Assembly (NCBI GenBank): GCA_005798685.1
Contig: SYIT01000126.1
Coordinates: 1-40,236, forward strand
DNA length: 40,236 nt
Reading direction: 5' to 3'
Origin: Actinomycetota bacterium
GTDB taxonomy: Bacteria > Actinomycetota > Thermoleophilia > Solirubrobacterales > Solirubrobacteraceae
Positions 19,380 through 35,041 of this stretch are shown here, one piece after another. The first letter of the stretch is position 1, and the number at the start of each line of letters is the position of its first letter. The translations under genes and the position numbers were made by a program. Below the pieces are notes generated by a model that was not told where the DNA came from, searched no databases, and saw only the letters and a program-made list of their open reading frames with translations.

Positions 19380-20006
19380 ATGGGAGCCATTCGAAACCGC
19401 GCAGTCGCCCTGCTTCCGCTGCGCCTGCGATGGTGGCTTGGGCAGCGACGCGAGTACGAACTCGCGGCTCGCTACCTCGGCGGACTTAGCGGCGTCGAGA
19501 TTGGCGGCAGCGCCCACAACCGCTTTCCGGTCGACGCAATCAACATTGACCGCTACGCGCAGATGGACACGATTTACAAGGACGAGGAGCGGCGACTCGC
19601 GGGAACCGCACTTGCGGTTGATCTCGTTGCGCCCGGTGACGATCTGCCGCTAGAAGACAACTCGGTTGATTTCGTTCTCGCCTCACACGTGATTGAACAC
19701 TTCCCCGACCCGATCAAGGCACTGCTCGAATGGAAGCGCGTCGCGACCGACTACATCTTTCTCGTCGTCCCCCACCGCGACCGCACCTTTGATTCGGACC
19801 GCGAGCTAACGCCGGTAGACGAGCTGCTCCAACGCCACGCAAGCGGATTTGGATCTGACGAGGACCGGCACTGGTCGGTCTGGAGCTGCGAATCGTTCGT
19901 TGAGCTGTGCCAGCGGATTGGGCTCAACGTCGTTGAAACCGAGGACCCGGACAAGAAGGTCGGCAACGGCTTTGCGGTTGTGATCGCGGTCAGCGCTGAG
20001 CGCTAG
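19380..20006 (+). CDS. Class I SAM-dependent methyltransferase-like protein
   Basis: A 208-residue protein from ATG 19380; the 17 codons before it in the ORF track are antisense to the flippase start. After a basic N-terminus, GVEIGGSAHNRFPVDAINIDRY near 40-62 is a modified motif I, and the middle reads LPLEDNSVDFVLASHVIEHFPDPIKALLEWKRV near 98-130, the classic post-I and motif-II pattern of methyltransferase families 11 and 23. VVPHRDRTFDSDR follows. SAM binding is likely; the acceptor, probably a sugar in this context, is inferred. The tail overlaps the O-antigen ligase stop by 17 bases. Confidence 0.83.
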   Translation: MGAIRNRAVALLPLRLRWWLGQRREYELAARYLGGLSGVEIGGSAHNRFPVDAINIDRYAQMDTIYKDEERRLAGTALAVDLVAPGDDLPLEDNSVDFVLASHVIEHFPDPIKALLEWKRVATDYIFLVVPHRDRTFDSDRELTPVDELLQRHASGFGSDEDRHWSVWSCESFVELCQRIGLNVVETEDPDKKVGNGFAVVIAVSAER

Positions 20007-21432
20007 CCGCGTCAGAGATCTCTTCGTTGGCGGCGACGAGCGCTCCAGCAATCAGCAACCCGACAAGAGCGACCGCCGGCATCTCCCAGTCCCAGTCGAG
20101 CCCAGCGTGGACTGCGAGCGCAGCGAGTGCGGCCACCGCGCCGCTCGCCTCAGCGCGGCGGACGTAGACGACGCTGCTGGCGCTCCAGGCAACGCCGCCG
20201 ATGAAGAGAGCAAGTGCCAGCAGCCCGAGCAACCCCAATTCGGCCGCCGTTTCGATGTAAAGCGAGTGGGCGTCGAGCGCGGGGTCAAGGATCGTCCGCT
20301 CGCGCCGCCAAACCACGCGGAACGCTCCGGCGCCATCGCCAAGTACCGGAGCGGCGACGAACATTCCGCCAGCGACCTTCCAATATGAATAGCGATTGCT
20401 TTCGAACGAAGCGAGGCGCCGACTGTCGGCGCCAAGCCGCGGCTGGCCGGCGCTACTACCGTTGCCGGCCGCTGCGGCGACGAAGCCCAGCACGATCACG
20501 GCCAGAACGCTTGCCACAAGCACGCGCGAGGAGGAGAGCGGCCGCTCGCTTGCACTGCCGGCCCAGCGCCGGCCAACGAAGAGAACCGCGGCGATCACGA
20601 TCGCGATTCCCGCCAGCAGAACCAGCCCCTCACGCTCGCGCGTGGCGAGCGAACCTTGCAGCGTGCGCGCGGCCGGCAGCAGCGCGGCCAAGATCGATGC
20701 GGCGACCGCGCCGCCGATTCCAACAGTGATCACCCTCATCTGACGGCGCTCGCGGGAAAAGACACTCAGCAAGAGTGCGCCGACCGCAACGGCGACGAGG
20801 GCCCCGCGCGAGAAGGTCAGGTAAACGCCAACGCCGAGTGGTACAGCGGCGCCGAGCGCAAAGTCGCGTAGCCTGCCCGCGCGGCTCGGATCGGCCGCCA
20901 CGCGCAGCATCAGGATTAAACCAACGGCGGCCACTATTCCGCTCGCGTTCCAATAGGTGAGCGGCTGTTCAAGCCGTCCGGCTGCCGATTGGGTCGCCGC
21001 TTCGTTGACGACACCAGGCAGAACGCGCGCCGCGAGCGCGTAAAGCGTTACCAGCAGCGCTCCCGCTCCAAGCGCCGGTTCGACGATCGTCAGGCCCGCG
21101 CGGCCACGCAGCAAGGCAACGGCAACGAGGAACGCACCGAGATAGAGAAGCAGCCGCTGAAGATCAGCTTGGGCAACGCTGCGAAGCGGCGCCCAGAGGA
21201 TTGACAGCCCGACCAGCAGCGTCAGCATAAGCAGGCCAATCAGCGCCCACTGCCCTGGTCGCTGCCGTAGCCAGGGTTGCGGCACGAGCCACGCAGCCGC
21301 GATCATTAAGGCCCAGATGAGCGCCCCGGCGACCAGCCGCGGCCCCGCGAAGTAGCCGCCCGAGAAGAAGGCCAGCACGGTCGGGGCGGCCAGCAGCAGG
21401 GCGCCAGCGGATAAGCGGAGTGCTCCAGCCAT
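19990..21432 (-). CDS. O-antigen ligase / Wzy-like polymerase family membrane protein
   Basis: A 480-residue protein with about twelve membrane segments. The large extracytoplasmic loop near residues 330-400 contains ESNRYSYWKVAGGMFVAAPVLGDGAGAFRVVW and then ALDAHSLYIETAAELGLLGL, which is the diagnostic Wzy_C/WaaL pattern including the conserved Arg and the HxxYxxxxxExG segment. Such proteins join or polymerise lipid-linked glycan units outside the membrane. ATG 21432 is preceded by TACGCT eight bases upstream. A gene for a TPR protein reads divergently next to it. The window lacks a chain-length (Wzz) gene, and polymerase versus ligase cannot be told apart. Confidence 0.92.
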   Translation of the reverse strand: MAGALRLSAGALLLAAPTVLAFFSGGYFAGPRLVAGALIWALMIAAAWLVPQPWLRQRPGQWALIGLLMLTLLVGLSILWAPLRSVAQADLQRLLLYLGAFLVAVALLRGRAGLTIVEPALGAGALLVTLYALAARVLPGVVNEAATQSAAGRLEQPLTYWNASGIVAAVGLILMLRVAADPSRAGRLRDFALGAAVPLGVGVYLTFSRGALVAVAVGALLLSVFSRERRQMRVITVGIGGAVAASILAALLPAARTLQGSLATREREGLVLLAGIAIVIAAVLFVGRRWAGSASERPLSSSRVLVASVLAVIVLGFVAAAAGNGSSAGQPRLGADSRRLASFESNRYSYWKVAGGMFVAAPVLGDGAGAFRVVWRRERTILDPALDAHSLYIETAAELGLLGLLALALFIGGVAWSASSVVYVRRAEASGAVAALAALAVHAGLDWDWEMPAVALVGLLIAGALVAANEEISDAASAQR

Positions 21433-23181: not shown

Positions 23182-23190
23182 GCTCTCTTG

Positions 23191-24270
23191 ATGCGAGTGG
23201 CTATTGACGCGCGACACCTCGGCCAAGGTCGCGGAATTGCGCGATACCTAGAAGAGATGCTCGCCGCGCTGGCGGTCGGCTTCCCTGACGATCAGTGGGT
23301 CGCAGTCGTACCCGGCGACCGCCAGATTGCGCCACCTAGCGGCGTCGAGCTGCGTCGCGCCCGCATAGCCTCAAAACCGCTCTTCGCGGCCGCAGCGCTG
23401 GCTGGCAGGCCGCGGCTTGAGAAGCTCGCCGGTGGTGCCGACGTCAGTTGGCTCCCCGCCCCAGCCCCGGTCGCCTGCGGGCGGCGAACGCCGTACGTGC
23501 TGACGATCCACGACCTCTCTTTCGAACTGCGCCGCGACGACTTCACCGCCTATGAGCAGTGCTGGTTGAAGGCAGCCCGCCCGCGCCGACTGGCCCAGCG
23601 TGCAGCTCGGATCGTCGTCGACAGCGAAGCAACGGCGGGCGATCTAATCGAAGCTGGGTGGGTGGCCGACGCCGCGAAGCTAACCGTCGTCCGGCCCGCG
23701 CCGTCAGCGTCGCTGCTCAGAGCCACCGACCAAAGTGCTGAAAGCGCCCGCGGCTACCTGCTCTACGTTGGCGCGCTTGAGCCGCGCAAAGGCCTCGACA
23801 CTCTGGCTCAGGCGGTTGGGATTGCACGGCGGTCGGGACTAACCGCACCGCTGCTGATCGTCGGCGAAGGCCGGCTAGCGAGCGAACTGGAAACGGCGCC
23901 CGGGATCCGCCTGCTTGGCCGTCAGAGCGACGAGCAGCTAGCGCGGCTTTACGCTGGCGCGCTGGCTCTCGTCATGCCTTCGCGCCTTGAAGGGTTTGGC
24001 TTCCCACCGGTCGAGGCCGCTGCGCACGGCGTACCGAGCGTAATAAGTGATCTGCCGGTCTTTCGCGAAACGCTCGGCGACGCCGCATTGACCTTTCCCG
24101 TTGGCGATGCTGAAGCGCTGGCAAAGGCGCTTGTGCTGGTCGGCGGCGATTCGGCGCTGCGCGCCCGTGTAGGCGAAGAGGCACAACTTGCTGTCGCCAG
24201 CCTGAGCTGGGCGAGCGCGGCGGCATCGCTTCGCGCCGTTCTCTCCGAGGCTTCCGGGGAAGCGCAATGA
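23191..24270 (+). CDS. GT4 glycosyltransferase
   Basis: A 359-residue GT-B enzyme starting at ATG 23191; the ORF-track TTG is one codon earlier. The N-terminus MRVAIDARHLGQGRGIARYLEEML is the common GT4 opening (acceptor loop with Gly-rich turn). VLTIHDLSFELRRDDF near 109 follows. The donor domain has LLYVGALEPRKGLDTLAQAV near 190, LLIVGEGRLASELE near 218 and SRLEGFGFPPVEAAAHGVPSVISD near 264-287, with the Glu-x7-Glu pair. It is of normal length, and its stop overlaps the next GT2 gene as ATGA, so the two enzymes probably act in sequence on the same glycan. Confidence 0.93.
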   Translation: MRVAIDARHLGQGRGIARYLEEMLAALAVGFPDDQWVAVVPGDRQIAPPSGVELRRARIASKPLFAAAALAGRPRLEKLAGGADVSWLPAPAPVACGRRTPYVLTIHDLSFELRRDDFTAYEQCWLKAARPRRLAQRAARIVVDSEATAGDLIEAGWVADAAKLTVVRPAPSASLLRATDQSAESARGYLLYVGALEPRKGLDTLAQAVGIARRSGLTAPLLIVGEGRLASELETAPGIRLLGRQSDEQLARLYAGALALVMPSRLEGFGFPPVEAAAHGVPSVISDLPVFRETLGDAALTFPVGDAEALAKALVLVGGDSALRARVGEEAQLAVASLSWASAAASLRAVLSEASGEAQ

Positions 24271-25142
24271 GCTTCGCCGCAGCGATTGTGCTCCACAACT
24301 CGGCGCGCGAACTGACGGCGCTTCTGGAGTCGATTGACGCTCATTTAGCGGCACGCCCGCAGGTGATATGTGCCGACAGCGGATCAAGCGACGACGGCGC
24401 GGCTGTGGCGCGCAAATGGGGCGCCGAAGTCCTCGTAATGGACGGAAACCTTGGCTACGGCGCAGCCAACAACGCTGCACTTGAGCGGGTGCGCGAAGAA
24501 GTGACGGTGCTCCTCAACCCCGATTCGCTCTTGATCGATGGCGGCATCGTCCGCCTGGTCGAAACTGCCCGTGCAAGCAGGGCGCTAGTCGCACCAAGGT
24601 TGCTCAACGATGACCGCAACGTCCAAGACAGCGCCCATCCGCTTCCGGGCGGCCGGGACGGCTATCTCGCCGCGCTAACCGTTCCTCGCCTGCTCCCGAC
24701 GAAGTTACGCAATCGCCTGCAACCGTTTCGCTCGACGACGCGGACCGAGGTCGGTTGGGCTATCGGCGCCTGCTTGGCTGCGAAGACAGAGCTGCTGCGT
24801 CAGCTAGGGCCGTTCGATCCCGCCGACTTCCTGTTCGCCGAGGATCTTGATCTCTGCCTTCGAGCACGTGCCCTCGGCATCCCGACGATCTTCGACCCGG
24901 CGGTCTCTTTGGTTCACAGCGGCGCGCACACCAGCCGAGGGGAACTGAAGCAGGAACGCTTCGACCTTCAGGCGCGCCGCCGCCGCGATGTGATTCTTCA
25001 GCAGCTCGGAGAGGGCGCGCTGCGCCGCGATGATCGCACACAGGCCCTTACCTTCAAAGCCAGAGCAGCGCTCGGGCGCGACCAGTCCCGCAACAAGATG
25101 TTGCTCGCGGCGCTGCGCAGCGCTCAGAACAGATCTAGCTGA
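24267..25142 (+). CDS. GT2 glycosyltransferase (rhamnosyltransferase-like)
   Basis: A 291-residue GT-A enzyme. It begins SFAAAIVLHNSARELTALLES, followed by CADSGSSDDGAAVA near 32, MDGNLGYGAANNAAL near 55, LLNPDSLLIDGG near 76 (replacing the DxD with NPD, as in rhamnosyltransferase-type GT2s), EVGWAIGACLAAKTELLRQLGPFDPADFLFAEDLDLCLRARALG near 155-198 and a histidine at SLVHSGAHTS. These are the marks of the WcaE/RfbF-like GT2 group. It is translationally coupled to the GT4 gene. The last 19 bases overlap the convergent uracil-DNA glycosylase gene. Confidence 0.9.
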   Translation: MSFAAAIVLHNSARELTALLESIDAHLAARPQVICADSGSSDDGAAVARKWGAEVLVMDGNLGYGAANNAALERVREEVTVLLNPDSLLIDGGIVRLVETARASRALVAPRLLNDDRNVQDSAHPLPGGRDGYLAALTVPRLLPTKLRNRLQPFRSTTRTEVGWAIGACLAAKTELLRQLGPFDPADFLFAEDLDLCLRARALGIPTIFDPAVSLVHSGAHTSRGELKQERFDLQARRRRDVILQQLGEGALRRDDRTQALTFKARAALGRDQSRNKMLLAALRSAQNRSS

Positions 25143-25846
25143 GGCCGCGCGTCTGGCTTTGGCCCCGGCGGCTTGGCGGCGCCGCGGCCTTCGGTTTGCT
25201 CGGCAACGTTGCGGGCTGGCACCGCTTCAGCTTCGCGCTGCGATTCGACCGCAGCCTGATCGGGTGAACCGTCGGCGAGCATCTGCGGCAGTCGTGAGAA
25301 GTCTTCGCGCAGCAGCTCCAAGTTCGGCCTGCGGTAAAGCGCGGCGGCCGGGTGAAAGACGGGATAGAGCCTGACGGTCCTTCCACCAAGTGAGCGTAGC
25401 TCTGCTTGGCCATGGATCACTGTAATTCCCGCATCATCCTGGCGCAGCAACTTGGTCGCGAAGTTACCGAGCGTGACTACAACGATCGGCTCAACCAATC
25501 TGATCTGCCCGATCAGAAACGGTGAGCAGTTCGCAATCTCATCGCTGCGGGGGTCGCGGTTCTCCGGCGGCCTGCACTTAAGAACGTTGGCTATGTACAC
25601 ATCGTCGCGGGTCATCCCGATTCCTGCCAGCAGTTCGCCAAGTAGCTTGCCCGACGCGCCAACGAACGGAACGCCCTCGCGATCCTCACCCGCGCCGGGC
25701 GCCTCACCAACAAACATCAGATCCGCATCGCCGTCCCCAGCCCCAAACACGACCTGGCTACGACTGGCAACAAGCTGAGGGCACTTCTCGCAAGCCTCAG
25801 CCGACGCCCGCAGCTCACGTTCAGCCGAGCGCCCGTCAGCCGCCAT
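25124..25846 (-). CDS. Type 4 uracil-DNA glycosylase (Fe-S)
   Basis: About 240 residues from ATG 25846, overlapping the upstream gene by 11 bases; the ORF-track start lies eight codons earlier. It removes uracil from DNA. Motifs are ACEKCPQLVASR near the N-terminus (first two cluster cysteines), MFVGEAPGAGEDREGVPFVGASGKLL near 42-67 (the catalytic GEAPG loop), IANVLKCRPPENRDPRSDEIANC near 85-107 (the other two cysteines), VTLGNFATK near 123 and YPVFHPAAAL near 160 (the DNA-intercalating HPAA loop). The C-terminal 40-50 residues are a Pro/Ala-rich extension beyond the family core. A DNA repair gene at the end of a glycan operon has no obvious functional link. Confidence 0.94.
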   Translation of the reverse strand: MAADGRSAERELRASAEACEKCPQLVASRSQVVFGAGDGDADLMFVGEAPGAGEDREGVPFVGASGKLLGELLAGIGMTRDDVYIANVLKCRPPENRDPRSDEIANCSPFLIGQIRLVEPIVVVTLGNFATKLLRQDDAGITVIHGQAELRSLGGRTVRLYPVFHPAAALYRRPNLELLREDFSRLPQMLADGSPDQAAVESQREAEAVPARNVAEQTEGRGAAKPPGPKPDARPQLDLF

Positions 25847-28800
25847 CCGCGCTCCTGCGGCGGCGCGCAAGAATATCTGCAGCGGCGCCAGTAATCAGGC
25901 CGATCATCGCCGCAAGAGCAAGCCAATGCTCGACGACGTGGTCGAGCGGATAGTCGAAATTAATCCCCTGCGCTGCCGCTGGTCTAATCACGTAGAGAAG
26001 ACCGACGACGGCAACGCACATCGCGGAAGCAGCGAAAAGCCAGGCCGACAGGCGCGGCCCACGGCTCTCCTGCATAGCTGGCACAGAAGATTCCGGGCGC
26101 GGCGCCACCCTTAGTTCAACTCCTGTGGCCGTATTCAGATCAACTGCCCTCTTGCCAGAGTGCTGCCGGCCCAAGTCCGCGTTCCGTGTTGCTCCACGGC
26201 GGCGCCACAAGCCTGTGAGAATGCAGGCCAGCAGCCCGAGGCCTGCAAGTCCGGAGATCCAGTAGCCAAGGTCCGCGAATCGCTGCGGGCCAAACTCGAA
26301 GCGAGCCGAGACACAGCCTGAACCGTTGATCCTCCAGCCGTTGGCGAAGCCGTCGATCTGCCGAGGCGCGCCGAGCTCGCGTTCGCGGCCCGATCTGTCG
26401 CTACACCAAGCGCGCCAGCCCGGCGAGAAACTCTCCCCGAGGACGAGCCAACCCTCGCCAACTAGGTTGACCTTGCCGTCTGTGCCGATCATCGCCGTAG
26501 GCGTACTTCGCGCAGGCGCAACCACTGGCGCTGCCCCGCGAAGCAGCAGCGAATCGACCGAAAAAACTCTGCCCGGCTTGGCAACCACCAGGTTTGAGCC
26601 GCGCGCAAGCAAGAGCCGCGCGCTGCTGTTGCAGCCGACAAAGCGGAGCGCCTCGCCGGCGTCCATTGCGGACAGATCTCCCGAAAATCGGAGCGCGACT
26701 GATCTGCCATTGGAGCGCACAGTTGCAGCGCCACAGGCCGTCGTGAACTCTCCCTTTCGCCTCGGTTTGGCGGCGGGCAGCCCTGGCACCTGAATCTCAG
26801 CGAGAGCTACGGAGCGTGGCACGCGTGCCCCCCGGGCAACACGCCGCAGCCGCTTGACCGAGAGGACTGTGACCTTCAGTTCGCTCGCCACCACGGTCCT
26901 CGGGAGTAAGACCTCGCCGCCCGCCGATACGGGTAGATCGAACCCCCCGTAAGGAGTTGCAACCGATACTCGGGTTGGCTTGAGATAGCGGCCCGGGAGC
27001 CTCTTGAGAATGATCCTTCTAACCGCGACCGCCTGCTCGCCTCGCCATCGGATCCAGGGTGGACTCTTCGGGTCGTACTCTGAGACCCACGCAGTCCGCG
27101 GATCATCGTCAAATGCCGATGACGCTCGGTTAAGCGGCACTCCTTCGAAACGCGTGGAGCTTTCGTACAAGTTTGCGCTTGGGACGCCGGCTAGGCGGTC
27201 GAGCGACGAGTCCGAGGCAGATGGCGCGATGCTGCCCCAGCCCGATGGATTGAAGGCTCGTGCGACGGGCAAGTTGACAATCCGCCGCAGGTCAGGCTCC
27301 GCGTCAGACATGTCCAGAGTGTTAAATGAGATCAAACCGCTGACCGGCGTCCCAGACTTGCGCGGGAAATCCGCAGTTAACCGCTCAAGAACAACGTTCA
27401 TACCCGAGCCCGACAGATCTTGCCCGGCGGCAAGGTCAGCAAGCCGTGTTGGAAGGCGCAGGGCCTCTGTCACTCGCAACCCGGGGATTTCGACTTCGTC
27501 AAGGCCGCCCAAGGACACGCCATAGATGGTTTCGCGCGCGGGGATCCGGATGCGAAGACTCTTGGTCATAGCCTCATTGAGTGGAACGTCGTTCCAGCCG
27601 GGACTAAGGCTGATGCGCCGCTCGACGCCGCCGTTGATGCTCAGGAACACCTCGGAAGTAATCGAGCCACTATCTCGATGAGGGCGAATCCGGATCTCCT
27701 TCAGGGGCATCGACCGCTTGAGGTTGATCTCAAGGAACCGCCGCGCGGGATCCGTCTCGCGCGTCATCCAGGCTGTGTCATTACGGCCGTCGAGGGCTGC
27801 AAATGGACGATGTTCGGGGAACAGAGAGAACCCAGGAGTAAAAGGCGAGAAGAGTGCTTCGAGTCCGCTGTAGACAGCGACCGTTCGCGATCCACTGCCG
27901 ACGCGCCTAAATGGATCGTAGTCGGGAAATTCGCGAGCGAGCGGGTCGTTCACCCCAAGGGGGGCTGACGTGTTGGCGACTACCTTTGAGACAAGTAGCC
28001 CGCGTCGTCTATTCGAATCAGTGAATGTCAGCGTCGGTTTGTCTGCGAGGAGATTCTCGAACGATGGCCTCGAAAGGTCTCCCGCGTAGAAGCTGGTTCG
28101 GGTCGGGTCAAGCGCACCGACACCAGCCATCGCGACAATGCCTTCGGCGTCGCCGTCGACGACGGCGGCTCCTGCGGCGTTGTAAACACGAGTAACGCGG
28201 GGGATCGCTGGCCGAGGTGCGGCATAGGCGCGAACCTCAGGAAGCCGGAAGGCAGGGCCTCCCCGGTCCGGCGGCGGGCTGAAGCGCTTTTCAGCTCCGA
28301 AAGTTGCGGCGGCCCTAGCAAAGCCAGGCTGTTGCAAGAGTTCCTCTTCCACCCTGGCCGGATCGAGGGATTCGCTCCGACGAGGAGATGAGTCGGTACC
28401 GACGAGGACGCGCCCGACGCCCATCAGCTGAAGCAACGGAGGTAGTTGACCCGGAGTCAAACGGCCCTGCTGGACGCGCGCGTCAACACTGTCGAGAAGC
28501 TGAGCTGCCTGCTCGCTCGCTGATCTCACAATCTGTCGCACAAGGACCGGCTTTTCTGAGAGCCCCGGCGCAACTGAGTTCTGGGTGCCGCCCCACGTGT
28601 ACCAGCCGAAGAGGTCTCCTGGCAAAACCATTATTCGCGTGTCGGTGGGTGTTGAGCGTTGCGCCTCGTCTACGGCCGCAACCCACGGCGACGGAACTTC
28701 CGCGAAGAACAATCGTGCGTCAACTGCGTTGCCGGCCCAAAGCGGGCGACCCCAAAAGAGCATCATCACAGCGATCAGCATCACCAGCACCGCTGAAGCA

Positions 28801-30041
28801 GGCCACACGGCGCGTACGACGCCGTTCACGTTGAGTCGGAGCGAGCGCAGCCAGTCGAACGCGCTACCAAGGCCAACCCCGGCCAAACATGCCAGCGCCA
28901 ACGCTGCCAGCGGCGCGGCCTTGTAAGTCGTCCGCATGAACTGAAGTGGGCCAGCGCTGTAATAAGCATCGGTGACGACGCGACCGATGGCGCTCTGCTG
29001 GGGGAACCCGGTTGACATCGCGAGCACCGACAACCCCAGCAGGAGGCCAAAGAAGGCTCCGTAGCGCCACCGCCGGAGGAATACTAGGCTCCCGATCGCA
29101 ATCATCGGTACTGCAAAGGTGGCGAGGATCGTCGGTGCGCTGAGCAGATACCCGCCGATTGCCGGCAGCTGCGGGTCGAGGTCAGGGTAGCCGTTGACGT
29201 AGGCGACCCAGTACCCCATAAGCCGCAGCGATTCCGATGCACTCGGGGTGTGCAAAATGGCTTCGGCATGCTCGGTGAAGGTCAGGTAGTTAGCCCCAAA
29301 TCTGGCCTGGATTATGACCGGAATTACCCACCACAGCGACGTTAGGAAGCAGAGAACTACGGCGCGCCAAGTGAACGCCACGACGGTTCGCAGGCCGGCT
29401 GGCCCGACGGCCTCAAAGAGTCCGAAAAGAGCGACCGCTGCCACCAGCCAGACCAGGACTGCGGCATTCAAGCCGCCGCCCGCCGCCGCTAGGAGCAGCG
29501 CTACGACCGACGGCGCTACCCAGCCGCGCGGGTTGGCGATGCCTTTGCTGACCCAAAGCAGTAGCCAAGGCAAGAGCGACGCAGCTAGCAGCCAGGAGGT
29601 GCCTCGGTTGAGCCCGATTGTGATGAAGGGGCCGGTAATGAAGATCAAGCCGGCGACGAAACCCGCGCTCTGCGACTGCGAAGGAAAGAGACGCTCGACG
29701 AGGCGTACTACGCCCCATGCGCCGAGCGCCAAGATTCCTGCGATCCAGAAGCGTTGAACGATCCAAACCGGGATGCTGGCAGCGTCGCCAAGAGCGAAGA
29801 ACGAACCCATCGGGAAGAGGTAGCCGACAAACTGGCTTGTCTGGATGTGCCCCAGATCGATCGTCGACGACCAGACGTCCCCGACCTGAGAGAGAAACCG
29901 CCCCGGCGCCGTGATCAGCTCGATCCGCTGATCGGTATATCGCATGTGCGGTCGTTGCCAGAACGAGATCGCAGCCGCAATGACCGTCAAGGCTAAGGGC
30001 GCAAAGAGTCCCCGCTGTGATATTTCGCGCCTCAAACTCAT
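25836..30041 (-). CDS. AftD-like arabinofuranosyltransferase homologue (GT-C, DUF3367 type)
   Basis: A giant envelope protein of about 1401 residues (1410 from the ORF-track TTG). I prefer ATG 30041, since TATCAT lies 11 bases upstream, inside the longer reading. The first loop after helix 1 reads RYTDQRIELITAPGRFLSQ, matching the AftD loop with the catalytic-type Asp (about residue 37), then QFVGYLFPMGSFFALG. Some 12 helices follow, to about residue 425. The extracytoplasmic part begins with MVLPGDLFGWYTWGGTQNSV, has two F5/8-type-C/carbohydrate-binding modules (DGRNDTAWMTRE near 750; DDDPRTAWVSEY near 980) and a further domain to about 1250, and ends in about three C-terminal helices. This is the architecture of mycobacterial AftD, an alpha-(1,3)-arabinosyltransferase. 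Whether this organism makes arabinan is unknown, so the sugar is open. Confidence 0.88.
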   Translation of the reverse strand: MSLRREISQRGLFAPLALTVIAAAISFWQRPHMRYTDQRIELITAPGRFLSQVGDVWSSTIDLGHIQTSQFVGYLFPMGSFFALGDAASIPVWIVQRFWIAGILALGAWGVVRLVERLFPSQSQSAGFVAGLIFITGPFITIGLNRGTSWLLAASLLPWLLLWVSKGIANPRGWVAPSVVALLLAAAGGGLNAAVLVWLVAAVALFGLFEAVGPAGLRTVVAFTWRAVVLCFLTSLWWVIPVIIQARFGANYLTFTEHAEAILHTPSASESLRLMGYWVAYVNGYPDLDPQLPAIGGYLLSAPTILATFAVPMIAIGSLVFLRRWRYGAFFGLLLGLSVLAMSTGFPQQSAIGRVVTDAYYSAGPLQFMRTTYKAAPLAALALACLAGVGLGSAFDWLRSLRLNVNGVVRAVWPASAVLVMLIAVMMLFWGRPLWAGNAVDARLFFAEVPSPWVAAVDEAQRSTPTDTRIMVLPGDLFGWYTWGGTQNSVAPGLSEKPVLVRQIVRSASEQAAQLLDSVDARVQQGRLTPGQLPPLLQLMGVGRVLVGTDSSPRRSESLDPARVEEELLQQPGFARAAATFGAEKRFSPPPDRGGPAFRLPEVRAYAAPRPAIPRVTRVYNAAGAAVVDGDAEGIVAMAGVGALDPTRTSFYAGDLSRPSFENLLADKPTLTFTDSNRRRGLLVSKVVANTSAPLGVNDPLAREFPDYDPFRRVGSGSRTVAVYSGLEALFSPFTPGFSLFPEHRPFAALDGRNDTAWMTRETDPARRFLEINLKRSMPLKEIRIRPHRDSGSITSEVFLSINGGVERRISLSPGWNDVPLNEAMTKSLRIRIPARETIYGVSLGGLDEVEIPGLRVTEALRLPTRLADLAAGQDLSGSGMNVVLERLTADFPRKSGTPVSGLISFNTLDMSDAEPDLRRIVNLPVARAFNPSGWGSIAPSASDSSLDRLAGVPSANLYESSTRFEGVPLNRASSAFDDDPRTAWVSEYDPKSPPWIRWRGEQAVAVRRIILKRLPGRYLKPTRVSVATPYGGFDLPVSAGGEVLLPRTVVASELKVTVLSVKRLRRVARGARVPRSVALAEIQVPGLPAAKPRRKGEFTTACGAATVRSNGRSVALRFSGDLSAMDAGEALRFVGCNSSARLLLARGSNLVVAKPGRVFSVDSLLLRGAAPVVAPARSTPTAMIGTDGKVNLVGEGWLVLGESFSPGWRAWCSDRSGRERELGAPRQIDGFANGWRINGSGCVSARFEFGPQRFADLGYWISGLAGLGLLACILTGLWRRRGATRNADLGRQHSGKRAVDLNTATGVELRVAPRPESSVPAMQESRGPRLSAWLFAASAMCVAVVGLLYVIRPAAAQGINFDYPLDHVVEHWLALAAMIGLITGAAADILARRRRSADGG

Positions 30042-30052
30042 CAAGAGCAGCG

Positions 30053-30058
30053 ATGATA
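30053..30058 (-). promoter_or_regulatory. -10-like element for the aftD-like gene
   Basis: TATCAT 11 bases before ATG 30041, the best match to TATAAT in the series. It lies in the 151- to 178-base gap behind the methyltransferase gene, in which I see nothing else definite. An internal promoter here would let the giant gene be expressed separately. Confidence 0.45.
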
Positions 30059-30219
30059 CGCGAAGCAAAGTCGCTCACTGACACGGCGGCCGGTTCCACT
30101 TAAAGCGCTGGAGCCGAGGTCAATTGAGCCTATTCGCAGCATGCCACCACTCGTGAGTCCCAAAGCTCGATTCCGGGAAGGCCAGATTCTCCCGCACGAC
30201 GAACTGATTGGGGCTGAAC

Positions 30220-30969
30220 CTAACGTTTGCGAACCCAGATCACGCAGTTCCAAGCGAGCACTTCGCGTACCCCGGCGATCCGCATAATCACGCGCAGTCG
30301 CGGCCAGTATCGGGGCTCGACGCGAACGACCGTCAAGCTCGAATCGGCACGAAGCTGCCGCAATGTCGAACCAATATGGACCGCCCAGAGTCCGTCGCCA
30401 TATGCATTCTTATACGGAGGGCCGCCGTGGCGCCGCTCGTAGAGCGCCGGGCCGAGCCGAGTCCCAAAGTAGTGCCACGGTGAGATTGCGTGCCCGCCCC
30501 ATGGTGAATACCAGTTGGTCCAAGAGATATAGGCCCACCCACCAGGCTTCAGAATCCGTGAAATCTCATCAAGTACTTTCGGCGCATGAGGTGTATGCTC
30601 CAAGAGGTTCGAGCAGTAGACGCCATCAAAGTCACCTGTCGGAAACGGGAGGTTCCCGGCGTCCGCTAGGACGAAGCCCGGCGGGGGGTCGCCTTGCAGC
30701 GATGCTTCGTCGATCGAATTGTCGACCGGCACCACCTCCGCTCCCGCACCTCTTAGACTGCTTGTGAAGAAGCCTGGTCCGCAGCCGAGGTCTGCGATTC
30801 GTTGGCCCGCAAGAAAGCCTACCTCGCGCTCTAGGTCCTCGATCGCTTCTCGCGCCATCAGATCGTAGAACGGCACAGGGTCGTCCGGTTCGTTTCGCCA
30901 GAGCCGAAAGAGCTGGTGCGCACGCGCCACGCCTTTTCGTCGTTGCGGCCCGGTCGACGACTGCGTCAT
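30220..30969 (-). CDS. Class I SAM-dependent methyltransferase (Rv0224c-like)
   Basis: A 249-residue methyltransferase. Motif I is IADLGCGPGFFTSSLRGAGAEVVPVDNS near 58-85, followed by FPTGDFDGVYCSNLLEHTPHAPKVLDEISRILKPGGWAYISW near 113-154, which covers motifs II and III. The C-terminal segment YERRHGGPPYKNAYGDGLWAVHIG and the layout with FGTRLGPALYER resemble, from memory, the essential M. tuberculosis protein Rv0224c more than general UbiG-type enzymes. There is no membrane segment. ATG 30969 overlaps the upstream methyltransferase stop. Location just upstream of the AftD-like gene suggests envelope glycan or lipid methylation; the acceptor is unknown. Confidence 0.88.
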   Translation of the reverse strand: MTQSSTGPQRRKGVARAHQLFRLWRNEPDDPVPFYDLMAREAIEDLEREVGFLAGQRIADLGCGPGFFTSSLRGAGAEVVPVDNSIDEASLQGDPPPGFVLADAGNLPFPTGDFDGVYCSNLLEHTPHAPKVLDEISRILKPGGWAYISWTNWYSPWGGHAISPWHYFGTRLGPALYERRHGGPPYKNAYGDGLWAVHIGSTLRQLRADSSLTVVRVEPRYWPRLRVIMRIAGVREVLAWNCVIWVRKR

Positions 30970-31550
30970 GCAGCCGCCTTCATCACTCGGAGCCGAAAGC
31001 GGATTTCTTCCGGGGTTAGGAGCGTTGCGAAGAAACGCTCGAAGATCACTGGCTCGACGTTGATCAGATGATCGAGCCAGCTGAGAACCGCGAAGTTGGA
31101 GAAATGGAACCTCTTTGATTCAACGACGAATCGCGCCGGGCTCTGATAGTTCGTACGCCCTGACAACTTCCAGCGCTCATAGAACTTCAAGTTGCGATCA
31201 CCTAGAAACTCGTAGTTGTCGAAACTGCGAATCCCAAACGGAATGCGATGGTCGGGCTCGGAGTAGAACTTGGTTGATAGGAAGAACGGAACAGCCACGT
31301 CGATCAGCGCGTCGGGTTCACAGATCCGCCATAGCTCGGTGACGACTGCGTTGAAATTGTCGAGGTGCTCGAGCACGTGCGAGGCGCTCACTTCGGCGAC
31401 GCTGTTGTCCTCGAACGGCCACGGATAGCTGTTGAGGTCGATGATTTCATTACCGCCGTAGTCGGCGATGTCGACGTTCACCCATCCGGAGCGCACGTCG
31501 GCGTTGCAGCCGAGGTTCAACCTCAGCGGGCCGCCAGCGCGATCAGCCAC
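30966..31550 (-). CDS. Small class I methyltransferase-like protein
   Basis: A 194-residue protein with LRLNLGCNADVRSGWVNVDI near 10-29 (motif I, with Asn following the GC), then IIDLNSYPWPFEDNSVAEVSASHVLEHLDN near 36-65 and a conserved-looking tail (FSEPDHRIPFGIRSFDNYEF type). This pattern is common among putative glycan methyltransferases in polysaccharide clusters. The GTG start overlaps the gmhB stop by eight bases, and the stop overlaps the next methyltransferase. Substrate unknown; heptose or a later glycan residue is an inference from the neighbours. Confidence 0.83.
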   Translation of the reverse strand: MADRAGGPLRLNLGCNADVRSGWVNVDIADYGGNEIIDLNSYPWPFEDNSVAEVSASHVLEHLDNFNAVVTELWRICEPDALIDVAVPFFLSTKFYSEPDHRIPFGIRSFDNYEFLGDRNLKFYERWKLSGRTNYQSPARFVVESKRFHFSNFAVLSWLDHLINVEPVIFERFFATLLTPEEIRFRLRVMKAAA

Positions 31551-32088
31551 GACGGATCCCCGTAAGTAATGCGACGGCCTCGGTGAGTCCCGCGACGGTC
31601 GCTGCGTTCACCGCGTTTGTCGAAGCTTCCGGACGGTCGGTCACGAGAATCGCGAGCGCGCCGATCTGATTGGCGGCCTCAATGTCGCTGCTTGAATCAC
31701 CAACCACCGCTGAATGCTTGTATTCGATCTGCGGGTCAAACTCAAGCGCCTGCTCAAAGAGACCCACCGCCGGCTTGCGGCACTGACAGCTGCCCGCAAG
31801 GTGAGGGCAAACCAAAATCTGGTCAATCTTACCGCCGGCCGACTCAACGGTCGCTCGCAGCCCGGAGTGGATTTGCTCAACGGCCTCCGGATCAGTTACG
31901 CCCTTCGCCAGCCCCTGCTGATTGGTCACGACGATCACTTTCATGCCCGCCCGCGTCAACTCGACGAGCGCGTCGACGGCGCCGGGCAGCAGCTCGAAGT
32001 CGTCGACTGAGTTGACGTATTCACCTTCGGACATCTTTCGGTTGATCACACCGTCGCGATCAACGAACACGGTCGTTATCGAGCTCAC
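31543..32088 (-). CDS. gmhB: D-glycero-D-manno-heptose 1,7-bisphosphate 7-phosphatase GmhB
   Basis: A 181-residue HAD-superfamily phosphatase. Motif I is VFVDRDGVINRK near 7-18 (nucleophile Asp and DxD), motif II VIVVTNQQGLAKG near 51-63, the zinc loop CPHLAGSCQCRKP near 94-106 with the Cys-His-Cys-Cys set, and VVGDSSSDIEAANQIGA near 125-141. These match GmhB and its HisB-N relatives; the adjacent gmhA and hddA genes settle it as the heptose enzyme. It takes the 7-phosphate off heptose 1,7-bisphosphate to give heptose 1-phosphate. The GTG start overlaps the gmhA stop (GTGA). Confidence 0.93.
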   Translation of the reverse strand: MSSITTVFVDRDGVINRKMSEGEYVNSVDDFELLPGAVDALVELTRAGMKVIVVTNQQGLAKGVTDPEAVEQIHSGLRATVESAGGKIDQILVCPHLAGSCQCRKPAVGLFEQALEFDPQIEYKHSAVVGDSSSDIEAANQIGALAILVTDRPEASTNAVNAATVAGLTEAVALLTGIRRG

Positions 32089-32699
32089 AAGTCAAAGCCC
32101 ATCCGTTGCTCGACGATCTCGCAGATCACGTGGCCAACGACACAATGAATCTCCTGCACTAAAGCCGTCTCCGACGATTCGACAAGGATCAACGAGTCGG
32201 CCAATAGATCGAGCTCGTGACCAAGCCCCGTCAGCGCGACCGTCGAAATCCCCATTGAACGCGCTTGGGCGAGAGCGGCGAGTACGTTCGGTGAACGCCC
32301 GCTGGTTGATATCGCGATCGCAACGTCACCCGGCTGCGCAAGAGCCTCCAATTCGCGTGCGAACGCCTGATCGTAGGAAAAATCATTCGCGAGAGCGGAA
32401 GCAACGGCGGAATTCGCTCCGAGTGAGAGCGCTGCCAGCGGGCGACGATCGGCGCGAAAGCGACCCACGAACTCGGCGGCAATGTGTTCAGCGTCGGCGG
32501 CGCTTCCGCCATTGCCGAAGAAGATCGCTTTCCCTCCGGATTCGATACTCGCTGCGATCATCTCAGCAGACCGTTCGATCGCTCCAACACTGCCTGCCGT
32601 CAAAAGCGCGCTCAGCAGACCGTCGTGTGCGACACGCCGCTGCTGGAGCGCCTCGGCGGCCGCCATCCCCCCGCCATCCTGCCCAGTATTGTCATGCAC
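32085..32699 (-). CDS. gmhA: Sedoheptulose 7-phosphate isomerase GmhA
   Basis: Converts sedoheptulose 7-phosphate to D-glycero-D-manno-heptose 7-phosphate in the cytoplasm. The SIS-domain core AIFFGNGGSAADAEHIAAEFVGRFR contains the Ser loop and the zinc-site His and Glu. AIAISTSGRSPNVLAAL is the second phosphate loop, and ALVQEIHCVVGHVICEIVE carries the C-terminal Gln and His ligands. The ORF track runs to 32849, but that part lies over hddA. I use GTG 32699, giving about 204 residues and an eight-base overlap with the hddA stop; ATG 32666 (193 residues, close to the E. coli length) is the alternative. Confidence 0.94.
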   Translation of the reverse strand: MHDNTGQDGGGMAAAEALQQRRVAHDGLLSALLTAGSVGAIERSAEMIAASIESGGKAIFFGNGGSAADAEHIAAEFVGRFRADRRPLAALSLGANSAVASALANDFSYDQAFARELEALAQPGDVAIAISTSGRSPNVLAALAQARSMGISTVALTGLGHELDLLADSLILVESSETALVQEIHCVVGHVICEIVEQRMGFDL

Positions 32700-33759
32700 C
32701 TGTCCACGACTCCAAGCCGACGTCGTCAAAGTAAACGTTAAGGACACTGAAGCCATCCTCAGCAAGAGCTTGCGCGACCTCGAAGCGGCAATCAAACGGC
32801 GCGTAGAAGAGCATGTAACCGCCGCCTCCGGCTCCGGTGATCTTTCCACCCAGCGCGCCGGCGTCGAGCGCGATTCGGTGGGCAGCCACCGCGGCCTCGG
32901 TCGAGATTAGGGGGGAGAGCTCTTGCTTCGCTAGCCAAGCCTCATTGAGCAGGTAGCCAAAATCGTCGAGCCGTCCCGCGAGCAGGGTTTGCGTCATCTC
33001 CAACGCTAGCTCCTTCTGACGGGCAAGCGCAGCACCCGTTGTACCATCATCATTGTTGTAACGCTCGCTCTGATCGTCGATGATGGTGGCCGATTCACGC
33101 GACGCCCCGAGATGACAAAGAAGCAGATTGTGTTCAAGCGTTGCGATCGTCGCGGAAGGCAGCCTCAGCTGATTGACCGTTACATCGTCGGCGTTGAACT
33201 CAAGAAAATTGACGCCTCCGAACGCGGCCGCGTAGTGATCCTGAGTCCCCCCGGCCAGACCGAGATCTTGACGCTCGATCTCAACCGCTGCTCGAGCTAT
33301 CTCATCTGCCGACCCACTGCGACCGTATGCAGCAAGCAACGCGCCCACGACCGCGACGACAATGGTTGACGATGCGCCAAGGCCTGAGCCTGGAGGAGCC
33401 TGCGATTGGACTCGCAACTCGACGCCGCGGCCATCTGAGGCCAAGCTGCTGATCGGTCCGCTCAGGAGGTGAAGACGCTGATCGAGCTGGCTTAGCTCGC
33501 CAATCCGTCCTTCTGAGGTCAGCCCAAGGTCAAGGCTACGGATGACAAGTTGATCATCTTCACGAATCCGCGCCGAAGCGTAGGCGTAACGCCTAATCGC
33601 AGCGCTCAAGACCGCGCCGCCCTCCCGCTCTGGATAAGGCGAAACATCGGTCCCGCCTCCAGCGAAACTGATGCGCATCGGGGCTCTGGCAAACGCGCGC
33701 GCGTCGGATTGCACAGCAATGTTTCCAAGGCGCGACCGACTTCTGGCAAGAGACCCCAT
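32692..33759 (-). CDS. hddA: D-glycero-alpha-D-manno-heptose 7-phosphate kinase HddA (GHMP kinase)
   Basis: A 355-residue GHMP-family kinase. ARAPMRISFAGGGTDVSPYPEREGG near 25-49 is the HddA/fucokinase-like substrate motif, QAPPGSGLGASSTIVVAVVGALL near 118-140 the ATP loop, and KITGAGGGGYMLFYAP near 308-323 motif 3. It would phosphorylate heptose 7-phosphate at C1 to the alpha-1,7-bisphosphate, which GmhB then dephosphorylates. Together with gmhA and gmhB this is the GDP-D-alpha-D-heptose branch; the bifunctional HldE of the ADP-beta branch is absent. ATG 33759 has TAGCTT eight bases upstream and leads the long minus-strand operon down to the AftD-like gene. Confidence 0.92.
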   Translation of the reverse strand: MGSLARSRSRLGNIAVQSDARAFARAPMRISFAGGGTDVSPYPEREGGAVLSAAIRRYAYASARIREDDQLVIRSLDLGLTSEGRIGELSQLDQRLHLLSGPISSLASDGRGVELRVQSQAPPGSGLGASSTIVVAVVGALLAAYGRSGSADEIARAAVEIERQDLGLAGGTQDHYAAAFGGVNFLEFNADDVTVNQLRLPSATIATLEHNLLLCHLGASRESATIIDDQSERYNNDDGTTGAALARQKELALEMTQTLLAGRLDDFGYLLNEAWLAKQELSPLISTEAAVAAHRIALDAGALGGKITGAGGGGYMLFYAPFDCRFEVAQALAEDGFSVLNVYFDDVGLESWTGA

Positions 33760-33889: not shown

Positions 33890-35041
33890 ATGCACATACT
33901 GATCCTGACAGACCGTGACTGGGACCACCCCGATGCTGGGGGTACAGGGGTTCACTTGACCGGCCAGATTGGCCATTGGGTGCGCTGGGGTCAGAGCGTG
34001 ACTGTGATCGCCGGCGGTTATGAAGGGGCTACTACGGTCGAGCATCGGGATCGGCTGACGGTCTACCGCGTTGGCTCGCGAGTCTCCGTTTTCCCAAGGA
34101 CCATCATTCGCGGCATCGTCGGCCGGATCCCCAAAGCCGATGTCACGCTGGAAATCATCAACGGAATCTGTTGGATGACGCCGCTCTGGTTGAAGGGTCC
34201 TCGTGTTTCGCTGATCCACCACGTCCACCGCTCGATGTACGTCGACGAGATGGGCCAGAAGGGGCGGCTTGCTGCGCTGGCACTGGAGACGCTGCCACTG
34301 CGCACTCTCTACCGTCGCTCGCACTTCTTGGTGGTCTCCGAGGCAACGAAGGGTGAGGTCGAGCGAACTCACGCGATTCCCAGCGCTTCGATCGACGTTG
34401 TATACCCAGGAGTCGACGGCGAGTTTTTCCAGCCTGGGCCAAAGAGCGAGCTGCCGACGATGATCTTCCTCGGCCGGCTCAAGGCCTACAAGCGCGTTGA
34501 AACCCTTCTCGACGTAGTCAGCGCAATCGACGGGCTGACACTCGACCTAGTCGGCGACGGCGATCATGGGCCGGCGCTGCGGGCAGAAGTTGCCGCACGC
34601 GGGTTGGCGGATCGGGTTCGCTTCCATGGCCACGTCAACGACGAGAAGAAGAAGCTCTTGCTCAGTCGCTCCTGGCTAGCGGCTACGGCCTCGGCGGCGG
34701 AGGGCTGGTCGTCGGCGACGTTGGAGGCCGCGGCAAGCGGCACGCCGACCGTGGCCCACCCTGTGGGCGGTCTTCGGGAGTCAATCGTGGATGGCCAAAC
34801 GGGGTTCCACGGCGAGACGCTTGGCGATCTTGTCGCCGCTGCCCAGCGACTTGTCGATGACGAACCGCTACGAACGCGACTGAGCGTGCAGGCTCGCGCG
34901 CGCGCCGAGGTGCTCAGCTGGGAGCGTTCCGCGCGCGGCACTCTGGGGGTACTTCAGGGTGCTGCCGACCAGGGGTTAGCGGCACCCCCCGCTGATATGG
35001 AACCCCAAAACGCCGCCACCGTGGGACGACAGACGCGTTGA
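33890..35041 (+). CDS. GT4 glycosyltransferase
   Basis: A 383-residue GT-B enzyme. It opens MHILILTDRDWDHPDAGGTGVHLTGQI, the GT4 acceptor-loop pattern, then VSLIHHVHRSMYVDEMG near 104. VVYPGVDGEFFQPGP near 166, MIFLGRLKAYKRVETLLDVV near 188, LDLVGDGDHGPALRAEV near 215 and SAAEGWSSATLEAAASGTPTVAHPVGGL near 263-290 give the donor domain with Glu-x7-Glu. It reads divergently from the heptose operon, so it may use the heptose nucleotide sugar; that is inference. The C-terminus (PPADMEPQNAATVG) is a non-conserved tail. Confidence 0.92.
   Translation: MHILILTDRDWDHPDAGGTGVHLTGQIGHWVRWGQSVTVIAGGYEGATTVEHRDRLTVYRVGSRVSVFPRTIIRGIVGRIPKADVTLEIINGICWMTPLWLKGPRVSLIHHVHRSMYVDEMGQKGRLAALALETLPLRTLYRRSHFLVVSEATKGEVERTHAIPSASIDVVYPGVDGEFFQPGPKSELPTMIFLGRLKAYKRVETLLDVVSAIDGLTLDLVGDGDHGPALRAEVAARGLADRVRFHGHVNDEKKKLLLSRSWLAATASAAEGWSSATLEAAASGTPTVAHPVGGLRESIVDGQTGFHGETLGDLVAAAQRLVDDEPLRTRLSVQARARAEVLSWERSARGTLGVLQGAADQGLAAPPADMEPQNAATVGRQTR

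What the first reader, a model, noticed from the sequence alone, without database searches (positions are those of the whole stretch)
25836..33759. AftD-like arabinosyltransferase homologue linked to heptose synthesis and an Rv0224c-like methyltransferase
One minus-strand run combines hddA-gmhA-gmhB, two methyltransferases and a giant AftD-type GT-C enzyme with carbohydrate-binding modules. From memory, M. tuberculosis has aftD (Rv0236c) and the methyltransferase Rv0224c in one neighbourhood, and gmhA-gmhB-hddA (Rv0113-Rv0115) in another; here the parts stand together. This may be a simpler or ancestral envelope-glycan system in a lineage not known to make arabinogalactan, and is the best candidate for an undescribed system in this window.
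Basis: partly seen in the sequence, partly recalled or inferred. Interest (0 to 1): 0.65.

Follow-up and report, generated by a model that had tools for sequence, protein, structure and literature searches.

The report
AftD-type envelope glycan locus with heptose genes
A lake bacterium of the Solirubrobacterales carries the three-gene core of a cell-envelope sugar locus known from the tuberculosis bacterium, next to heptose-making genes; this core turns out to be inherited as a unit across the whole actinobacterial phylum, including lineages that seem unable to make the sugar (arabinose) the enzyme is named for.

Summary
25836-30041(-) encodes a full-length AftD-family GT-C glycosyltransferase (Pfam 1e-88; predicted fold best matches cryo-EM AftD). 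It lies beside an MtrP/Rv0224c-type methyltransferase, a second methyltransferase and gmhB-gmhA-hddA, with an Rv0225-type GT4 just beyond. The window is a Solirubrobacterales (Thermoleophilia) lake MAG.

New result: in 297 Actinomycetota genomes the Rv0225-type GT4 occurs in 46 of 47 AftD genomes and 4 of 250 others, within 25 kb in 42 of 43 same-contig pairs; MtrP occurs in 27 genomes, 26 with AftD. AftD-GT4-MtrP is therefore a phylum-wide module, not peculiar to mycolate makers, where it was described. The heptose genes are a later addition: conserved in the window's genus, and beside the same module in one unrelated family.

The reading "arabinosyltransferase" is not supported here. Emb is absent from 61 relatives; the decaprenyl-phosphoryl-ribose synthase is absent from this genome and most AftD-bearing congeners and does not track AftD in the order; AftD-bearing Solirubrobacter deserti has no reported arabinose. 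Most likely the enzyme transfers another lipid-linked sugar onto a heptose-containing surface polysaccharide. Donor and acceptor are inferred, not shown.

The parts
25836..30041 (-). AftD-family GT-C glycosyltransferase, about 1401 aa: multi-pass N-terminal GT-C domain, beta-sandwich carbohydrate-binding modules, C-terminal membrane helices
   Evidence: PF11847 1e-88, PF24607 3e-8; PDB 6w98/6wbx 1e-36; AF2 model of residues 10-741 pLDDT 85, best PDB fold match 6w98 E=4e-23; C-terminal model matches 6w98 2e-28 and CBM32 domains; putative catalytic Asp46 is D in 39/40, E in 1/40
30220..30969 (-). MT1: MtrP/Rv0224c-family SAM-dependent methyltransferase
   Evidence: Methyltransf_11 4e-19; 35% over full length to the mycobacterial neighbour of the Rv0225-type GT4; family-specific motifs TNWxSPWGGHxxxPWHYLG and PRYxP...REfxxWN
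30966..31550 (-). MT2: short class I methyltransferase-like protein, conserved in congeners (77-83%)
   Evidence: Methyltransf_11 9e-5, just over the curated cut-off; synteny
31543..32088 (-). gmhB: heptose-1,7-bisphosphate 7-phosphatase
   Evidence: NCBIfam NF006506 5e-42, below its equivalog cut-off
32085..32699 (-). gmhA: sedoheptulose-7-phosphate isomerase (GTG start overlapping the hddA stop)
   Evidence: TIGR00441 2e-45; PDB phosphoheptose isomerases 4e-42; start region read
32692..33759 (-). [quoted passage not shown]
   Evidence: NF049969 9e-58; PDB 4usm/3k85/4n3o 1e-56 to 1e-48
33890..35041 (+). GT4d: Rv0225-type GT4 glycosyltransferase, divergent partner of the heptose operon and constant companion of AftD
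   Evidence: Glycos_transf_1 1e-27; 32% full length to the mycobacterial GT4 next to MtrP; co-occurs with AftD in 46/47 genomes
25124..25870 (-). family 4 uracil-DNA glycosylase, overlapping the end of the AftD gene; probably a syntenic passenger
   Evidence: TIGR00758 3e-55; same neighbour in congeners and in two Acidimicrobiales loci
23188..25142 (+). GT4a (23188-24270) and GT2b (24267-25142), convergent glycosyltransferases conserved beside AftD in the genus
19990..21432 (-). Wzy_C / O-antigen-ligase-type membrane protein; next to AftD in family-level relatives
   Evidence: PF04932 1e-13
7897..9141 (-). Acyl_transf_3 membrane acyltransferase (TmaT superfamily, about 30% to the mycobacterial TmaT position); lies beside AftD or hddA in several relatives
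   Evidence: PF01757 3e-20. AT3 proteins are common, so this link is weak

Best explanation
The locus is a Solirubrobacterales version of an ancient actinobacterial envelope-glycan module whose fixed core is an AftD-family GT-C glycosyltransferase, an Rv0225-type GT4 and (usually) an MtrP-type methyltransferase. The GT4 and methyltransferase act in the cytoplasm on a lipid-linked glycan or glycolipid precursor. After export, the AftD-like enzyme, anchored by its GT-C domain and held to the polymer by its beta-sandwich modules, transfers a sugar from a polyprenyl-phosphate donor to the polysaccharide, with Asp46 as catalytic base. In this genus an overlapping hddA-gmhA-gmhB operon supplies activated D-glycero-D-manno-heptose for the same surface polysaccharide, which the neighbouring Wzy/MatE/GT cluster (6.5-25 kb) builds. 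The donor is probably not decaprenyl-phosphoryl-arabinose. Shown: gene identities, fold, conserved catalytic-site residues, phylum-wide co-inheritance and linkage, genus-level conservation of the heptose block, lack of Emb and mostly of the arabinose donor pathway. Inferred: that the products act in one pathway, the nature of acceptor and donor, and the role of heptose.
For: AftD identity and fold. Co-occurrence in 297 genomes: AftD/GT4 46-1-4-246 (Fisher 4e-48), AftD/MtrP 26-21-1-249 (2e-23); GT4 within 25 kb of AftD in 42/43 and MtrP in 24/24 same-contig pairs; the association repeats inside families, e.g. 3 AftD+ genomes of genus g75 (family f27) have the GT4 while 5 AftD- ones do not, likewise in f1, f52, f47. 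GT4 and MtrP genes overlap by 4 bp just upstream of AftD in Streptomyces canus (L161), and AftD, MtrP and GT4 are contiguous in G254, G313 and Acidimicrobiia. hddA found in 7 of 10 AftD+ congeners and 0 of 7 AftD- congeners (p=0.01). Complete hddA-gmhA-gmhB beside TmaT-like/AftD/MtrP/GT4/MmpA/PgfA genes in an unrelated family, G313. Emb 0/61, Glf 0/17 in the genus. DPPR synthase in 6/21 AftD+ and 14/40 AftD- relatives (p=0.78); chance that 8 congeners all miss it merely through incompleteness about 1e-6. Three named AftD-bearing isolates of the order have no DPPR synthase, and Solirubrobacter deserti hydrolysate sugars are galactose, xylose, rhamnose and ribose (PMC10722151).
Against: Two AftD-bearing congeners (G011, G016) carry a DPPR synthase with an adjacent DprE1-like gene; in G011 the full synthase-DprE1-DprE2 cassette was checked. 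Across the phylum AftD does associate with DPPR synthase (34/47 vs 52/250), and in several genomes of family f30 the two are within about 30 kb, so a pentofuranose donor is the norm elsewhere. The window's MAG is only 78% complete. MT1 is missing from several congeners and replaced by an unrelated methyltransferase-like ORF, so MtrP is not essential to the module. No HddC nucleotidyltransferase was identified in the window. Fisher values ignore phylogenetic dependence; the within-family contrasts are the safer evidence.
Confidence: 0.6

Rival explanations
1. A genuine arabinofuranosyltransferase: the enzyme adds D-arabinofuranose from decaprenyl-phosphoryl-arabinose to a non-galactan polymer, and the donor genes lie in the unsequenced 22% of this genome.
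For: Same family, fold and active-site residues as mycobacterial AftD; congener G011 has DPPR synthase, DprE1 (5e-144) and DprE2 (8e-77) side by side; phylum-wide AftD/DPPR association.
Against: DPPR synthase absent from 8 of 10 AftD+ congeners and from the isolates Paraconexibacter antarcticus, S. phytolaccae and S. deserti; no arabinose in S. deserti hydrolysates; no association within the order; window enzyme falls in a clade separate from mycobacterial AftD.
Confidence: 0.2
2. The AftD-like enzyme transfers heptose itself from polyprenyl-phosphate-heptose, made from GDP-heptose by one of the neighbouring GT2 enzymes: a donor swap from pentofuranose to heptose.
For: hddA-gmhA-gmhB directly next to the AftD module in two unrelated lineages (window genus, G313), both without DPPR synthase.
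Against: GT2b shows no clear kinship to polyprenyl-phosphate sugar synthases; many DPPR-lacking AftD loci have no heptose genes; heptose can equally be a backbone sugar added in the cytoplasm.
Confidence: 0.1
3. Passive neighbourhood: heptose operon, AftD and other glycan genes only share a polysaccharide-gene island and act on different polymers.
For: The window is a long, mixed glycan cluster; MT1 and hddA come and go between congeners; a DNA-repair gene (UDG) is embedded in the same row.
Against: AftD-GT4-MtrP linkage is phylum-wide and repeats within families; heptose genes track AftD in the genus (p=0.01) and recur in G313.
Confidence: 0.1

Closest known systems
Mycobacterial AftD (Rv0236c; PDB 6w98, 6wbx, 6wby)
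   Same: Pfam family, GT-C fold, size, carbohydrate-binding modules, conserved catalytic-site residues, genomic company of MtrP and the Rv0225 GT4
   Different: 23-25% identity, separate clade, no Emb and usually no decaprenyl-phosphoryl-arabinose pathway in the genome
tmaT-mmpA-mtrP-aftD locus of Corynebacterineae (Rv0224c-Rv0228, Rv0236c; cg3161-cg3168)
   Same: AftD, MtrP-type methyltransferase and Rv0225-type GT4; an acyltransferase-3 gene in the wider cluster
   Different: No PgfA/Rv0227c or MmpA/Rv0226c gene found in the window; no mycolic acids expected; heptose operon inserted. Described in the papers found as a locus of mycobacteria and corynebacteria (PMC8698533, PMC7775120)
gmhA-gmhB-hddA heptose genes, M. 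tuberculosis Rv0113-Rv0115
   Different: Here an overlapping operon facing AftD; no nucleotidyltransferase (HddC) identified nearby
Three-component pentofuranose systems with GT136 GT-C enzymes (PMC11127046)
   Same: Logic of GT-C enzyme plus CBM acting on a finished polysaccharide with a polyprenyl-phosphate donor
   Different: Different GT-C family; no phosphoribosyl donor synthase in the window

Membership tests
AftD family (Pfam PF11847 GT-C_AftD) | Profile match over the whole GT-C domain | tested here: met
   E=1e-88, profile positions 2-654 of 661
AftD family (Pfam PF11847 GT-C_AftD) | GT-C fold with C-terminal beta-sandwich carbohydrate-binding modules | tested here: met
   AF2 models best match 6w98 (E=4e-23 and 2e-28); CBM_AftD 3e-8
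AftD family (Pfam PF11847 GT-C_AftD) | Catalytic-site Asp after the first helix and conserved E/R/W residues | tested here: met
   Asp46 in 39/40 (Glu in one), Glu266, Arg282, Trp287, Arg379 invariant in 40 sequences
Arabinofuranosyltransferase (AftD function) | Genome makes decaprenyl-phosphoryl-arabinose (DPPR synthase, DprE1/2) | tested here: inconclusive
   Absent from this 78% complete genome and most AftD+ congeners; present in G011 and G016
Arabinofuranosyltransferase (AftD function) | Arabinogalactan machinery (Emb, Glf) | tested here: not met
   Emb 0/61 relatives; Glf 0/17 in genus
Arabinofuranosyltransferase (AftD function) | Arabinofuranose transfer activity | not testable with these tools
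   No assay; a related AftD-bearing isolate reports no arabinose in whole-cell sugars
MtrP/Rv0224c methyltransferase family | Full-length similarity and family motifs outside the SAM-binding core | tested here: met
   35% over residues 10-247, alignment A3 with motifs to the C-terminus
tmaT-mmpA-mtrP-aftD locus | AftD, MtrP and Rv0225-type GT4 linked | tested here: met
   All within 10 kb in the window; phylum-wide linkage
tmaT-mmpA-mtrP-aftD locus | PgfA/Rv0227c and MmpA/Rv0226c present | tested here: not met
   No Pfam PorA match in the proteins scanned; blastp of the mycobacterial MmpA against window proteins gives only a weak AftD hit (E=0.002)
D-glycero-D-manno-heptose nucleotide synthesis | GmhA, HddA, GmhB | tested here: met
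   below strict equivalog cut-offs
D-glycero-D-manno-heptose nucleotide synthesis | HddC (GDP) or HldE (ADP) nucleotidyltransferase | tested here: inconclusive
   None seen among Pfam-scanned window ORFs; whole genome not searched for it

The most novel reading that the evidence does not exclude
AftD-GT4-MtrP is a phylum-wide glycan-modifying module older than mycolic acids and arabinogalactan, and in two unrelated lineages (the window's genus and G313) the AftD-type enzyme has changed its donor from a pentofuranose to heptose, supplied by the adjoining hddA-gmhA-gmhB operon.
Probability: 0.1. Interest if true: 0.8.

Novelty: new variant of a known kind. Interest (0 to 1): 0.55.

Why it matters
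In mycobacteria and corynebacteria MtrP, MmpA and TmaT are studied as helpers of mycolate transport, MtrP's chemistry is unknown, and the only paper found naming Rv0225 is a survey of hypothetical proteins. Finding AftD, the Rv0225-type GT4 and MtrP inherited together in actinobacteria that are not known to make mycolates (Streptomyces, Acidimicrobiia, Solirubrobacterales) suggests that their original job is to build or decorate an envelope glycan and that the mycolate phenotype may be indirect. It offers harmless, genetically tractable hosts such as Streptomyces, where the three genes sit together, for finding out what these proteins do. It also warns that 'arabinofuranosyltransferase' as an automatic name for AftD homologues is unsafe in lineages without the arabinose donor.

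Tried and rejected
Heptose block as a recent horizontal insert: G+C is only slightly lower in hddA/MT2 and not consistently so in congeners; not claimed. GT2b as polyprenyl-phosphate-sugar synthase: no PDB match and only weak generic family hits. The ~250-residue ORF often seen beside AftD in L151-like loci: antisense of the methyltransferase gene, discarded. ALO (PF04030) as a DprE1 marker: most strong hits are other oxidases; only the weak hits adjacent to DPPR synthase were read as DprE1, confirmed by NCBIfam in G011. TmaT relation of the acyltransferase: about 30% identity inside a very large family, kept as weak. MAG chimerism as source of the gene order: rejected, since the order recurs in independent MAGs. 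The first structure search by sequence gave only AftD as strong relative, so the C-terminal half was modelled separately. Literature searches for DUF3367 or for AftD in non-mycolate actinobacteria found nothing relevant, but the library lacks most subscription papers.
Full report
WHAT IS THERE. The 25836-30041 gene matches the Pfam AftD GT-C domain end to end (E=1e-88) and the AftD carbohydrate-binding module (3e-8). By sequence its only strong relatives in the PDB are the mycobacterial AftD structures. An AlphaFold2 model of residues 10-741 (pLDDT 85, pTM 0.88) has 6w98 as its best fold match (E=4e-23), followed by other GT-C enzymes (OST, AftA, PglB, ArnT). The C-terminal model (pLDDT 78) again matches AftD (2e-28) and CBM32 domains. 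The presumed catalytic aspartate, Asp46, is Asp in 39 of 40 diverse homologues (Glu in one); Glu266, Arg282, Trp287 and Arg379 are invariant. hddA, gmhA and gmhB are identified by NCBIfam and, for hddA and gmhA, by PDB relatives, though below the strict equivalog cut-offs. The genes hddA>gmhA>gmhB>MT2>MT1 overlap one another by a few bases; about 180 bp separate MT1 from AftD.

WHERE IT COMES FROM. The window lies in a 1.77 Mb, 78% complete genome. The nearest named records are Solirubrobacterales/Solirubrobacteraceae MAGs, and related loci occur in Solirubrobacter and Paraconexibacter isolates. On a tree of the GT-C domain the window enzyme sits in a fully supported Solirubrobacterales clade next to an Acidimicrobiales clade, and apart from the clade holding mycobacterial, Amycolatopsis, Micromonospora and Streptomyces AftD.

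CONSERVATION IN THE GENUS. In congeners with enough sequence the order HddA-GmhA-GmhB-MT2-(MT1)-AftD-UDG-GT2b/GT4a-GT4b is kept in whole or in large part, with GT4d-PanC-PanB beyond. MT1 is replaced by an unrelated methyltransferase-like ORF in several congeners. hddA occurs in 7 of 10 AftD-bearing congeners and in none of 7 without AftD (Fisher p=0.01); elsewhere in the order it is absent or very divergent.

THE ANCIENT CORE. A mycobacterial genome (its AftD scores 1881 bits against 6w98) has the familiar order MtrP, GT4, MmpA, PgfA-type, TmaT ... AftD. MT1 is a full-length homologue of that MtrP (35%), and the GT4 at 33890-35041 of its neighbour, Rv0225 (32%). The alignment of MT1 relatives shows motifs beyond the SAM-binding core that mark a specific family. 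Profiles of both were searched in the same 297 Actinomycetota genomes as AftD. AftD is found in 47, the GT4 in 50, both in 46; MtrP in 27, of which 26 have AftD. The GT4 lies within 25 kb of AftD in 42 of 43 cases on one contig, MtrP in 24 of 24. The association holds inside families that differ in AftD content: three AftD-bearing genomes of one genus (g75, family f27) have the GT4 and five AftD-less ones lack it, with similar contrasts in f1, f52 and f47. In Streptomyces canus GT4 and MtrP genes overlap by 4 bp directly upstream of AftD. MmpA-like genes at about 39% lie near AftD in Amycolatopsis, Micromonospora and Virgisporangium, and PgfA-family (Pfam PorA) genes also in Streptomyces. The papers found describe this locus in mycobacteria and corynebacteria and report no similarity of MmpA to characterised proteins, or to proteins outside the group (PMC8698533; PMC7775120). 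The wider distribution therefore appears to be unreported in the literature I could search.

THE HEPTOSE LINK. The heptose genes are an addition to this core, but not unique: in G313, of a different family, hddA (45%), gmhA (46%) and gmhB (36%) stand in the same order beside an acyltransferase-3 gene, AftD, MtrP, GT4, an MmpA homologue and a PgfA-family gene. The association of heptose supply with the module has thus been seen in two distant lineages; whether by common origin or twice is open.

DOES IT MAKE ARABINAN? Emb is absent from all 61 relatives, UDP-galactopyranose mutase from all 17 genomes of the genus. DPPR synthase, the first step to the arabinose donor, is missing from this genome and from 8 of 10 AftD-bearing genomes of the genus (window included); if all carried it, the chance of missing it in those eight from incompleteness is about 1e-6. 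In the order it does not track AftD (6/21 vs 14/40, p=0.78), although across the phylum it does (34/47 vs 52/250). S. deserti, S. phytolaccae and P. antarcticus have the AftD homologue and no DPPR synthase; whole-cell sugars of S. deserti are galactose, xylose, rhamnose and ribose (PMC10722151). Against this, congener G011 has DPPR synthase, DprE1 and DprE2 in a row. The most economical reading is that many enzymes of this clade use another lipid-linked sugar. This is inference.

MODEL. The neighbouring GT, MatE and Wzy genes build and export a surface polysaccharide; the heptose operon supplies one of its sugars; GT4 and MtrP act on a precursor; the AftD-like enzyme adds a sugar outside the membrane. 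Gene identities and linkage are shown; the shared pathway, donor and acceptor are not.

VERDICT. The enzyme is a new, divergent member of a known family; the combination with heptose genes is a variant; the useful new fact is the phylum-wide inheritance of AftD with the Rv0225-type GT4 and MtrP.

Noticed in passing
L090, L092, L102 (records CAMCVN010000012, CAMDBT010000002, CAMDSG010000059): Public lake-MAG records titled 'Bifidobacterium breve' carry sequence of the window's genus (L090 = G012:C12, L092 = G004:C2) or of other, apparently non-bifidobacterial actinobacteria; the organism names look wrong.
   Followed up: partly
L031, L040, L041, L044 (between AftD and MT2): In several congeners the MtrP-type gene is gone and an opposite-strand, methyltransferase-like ORF of about 265-280 aa stands in its place; L033 keeps MtrP and has a different Methyltransf_24 gene there, also found beside AftD in Amycolatopsis.
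   Followed up: partly
25124-25870; L109, L110: A family 4 uracil-DNA glycosylase gene abuts AftD in this genus and is also found within AftD loci of two Acidimicrobiales, an odd neighbour for glycan genes.
   Followed up: no
L036, L037, L038: In family-level relatives the AftD-GT4 locus sits next to tsaE/tsaB/rimI/tsaD; in the window the same tRNA-modification genes lie at 3.4-6.1 kb, about 20 kb away, with polysaccharide genes in between.
   Followed up: no
L182:11281-13325: In G313 a PgfA-family gene (NF053601, 3e-76) and a sugar-nucleotide epimerase-like gene lie directly beside gmhB, so the mycobacterial polar-growth factor family is physically tied to heptose genes there.
   Followed up: partly
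L072, L067, L079, G148: Several actinobacteria have two AftD-family genes close together, in G313 in different clades of the AftD tree (G313a/G313b), suggesting paired enzymes with different roles.
   Followed up: no
window 9105-10721, 14627-16279, 16276-17853, 37019-38917: Four large ORFs of 525-632 aa in or near the glycan cluster with no significant Pfam match; 37019-38917 is only 30-40% conserved among congeners in otherwise well conserved surroundings.
   Followed up: no
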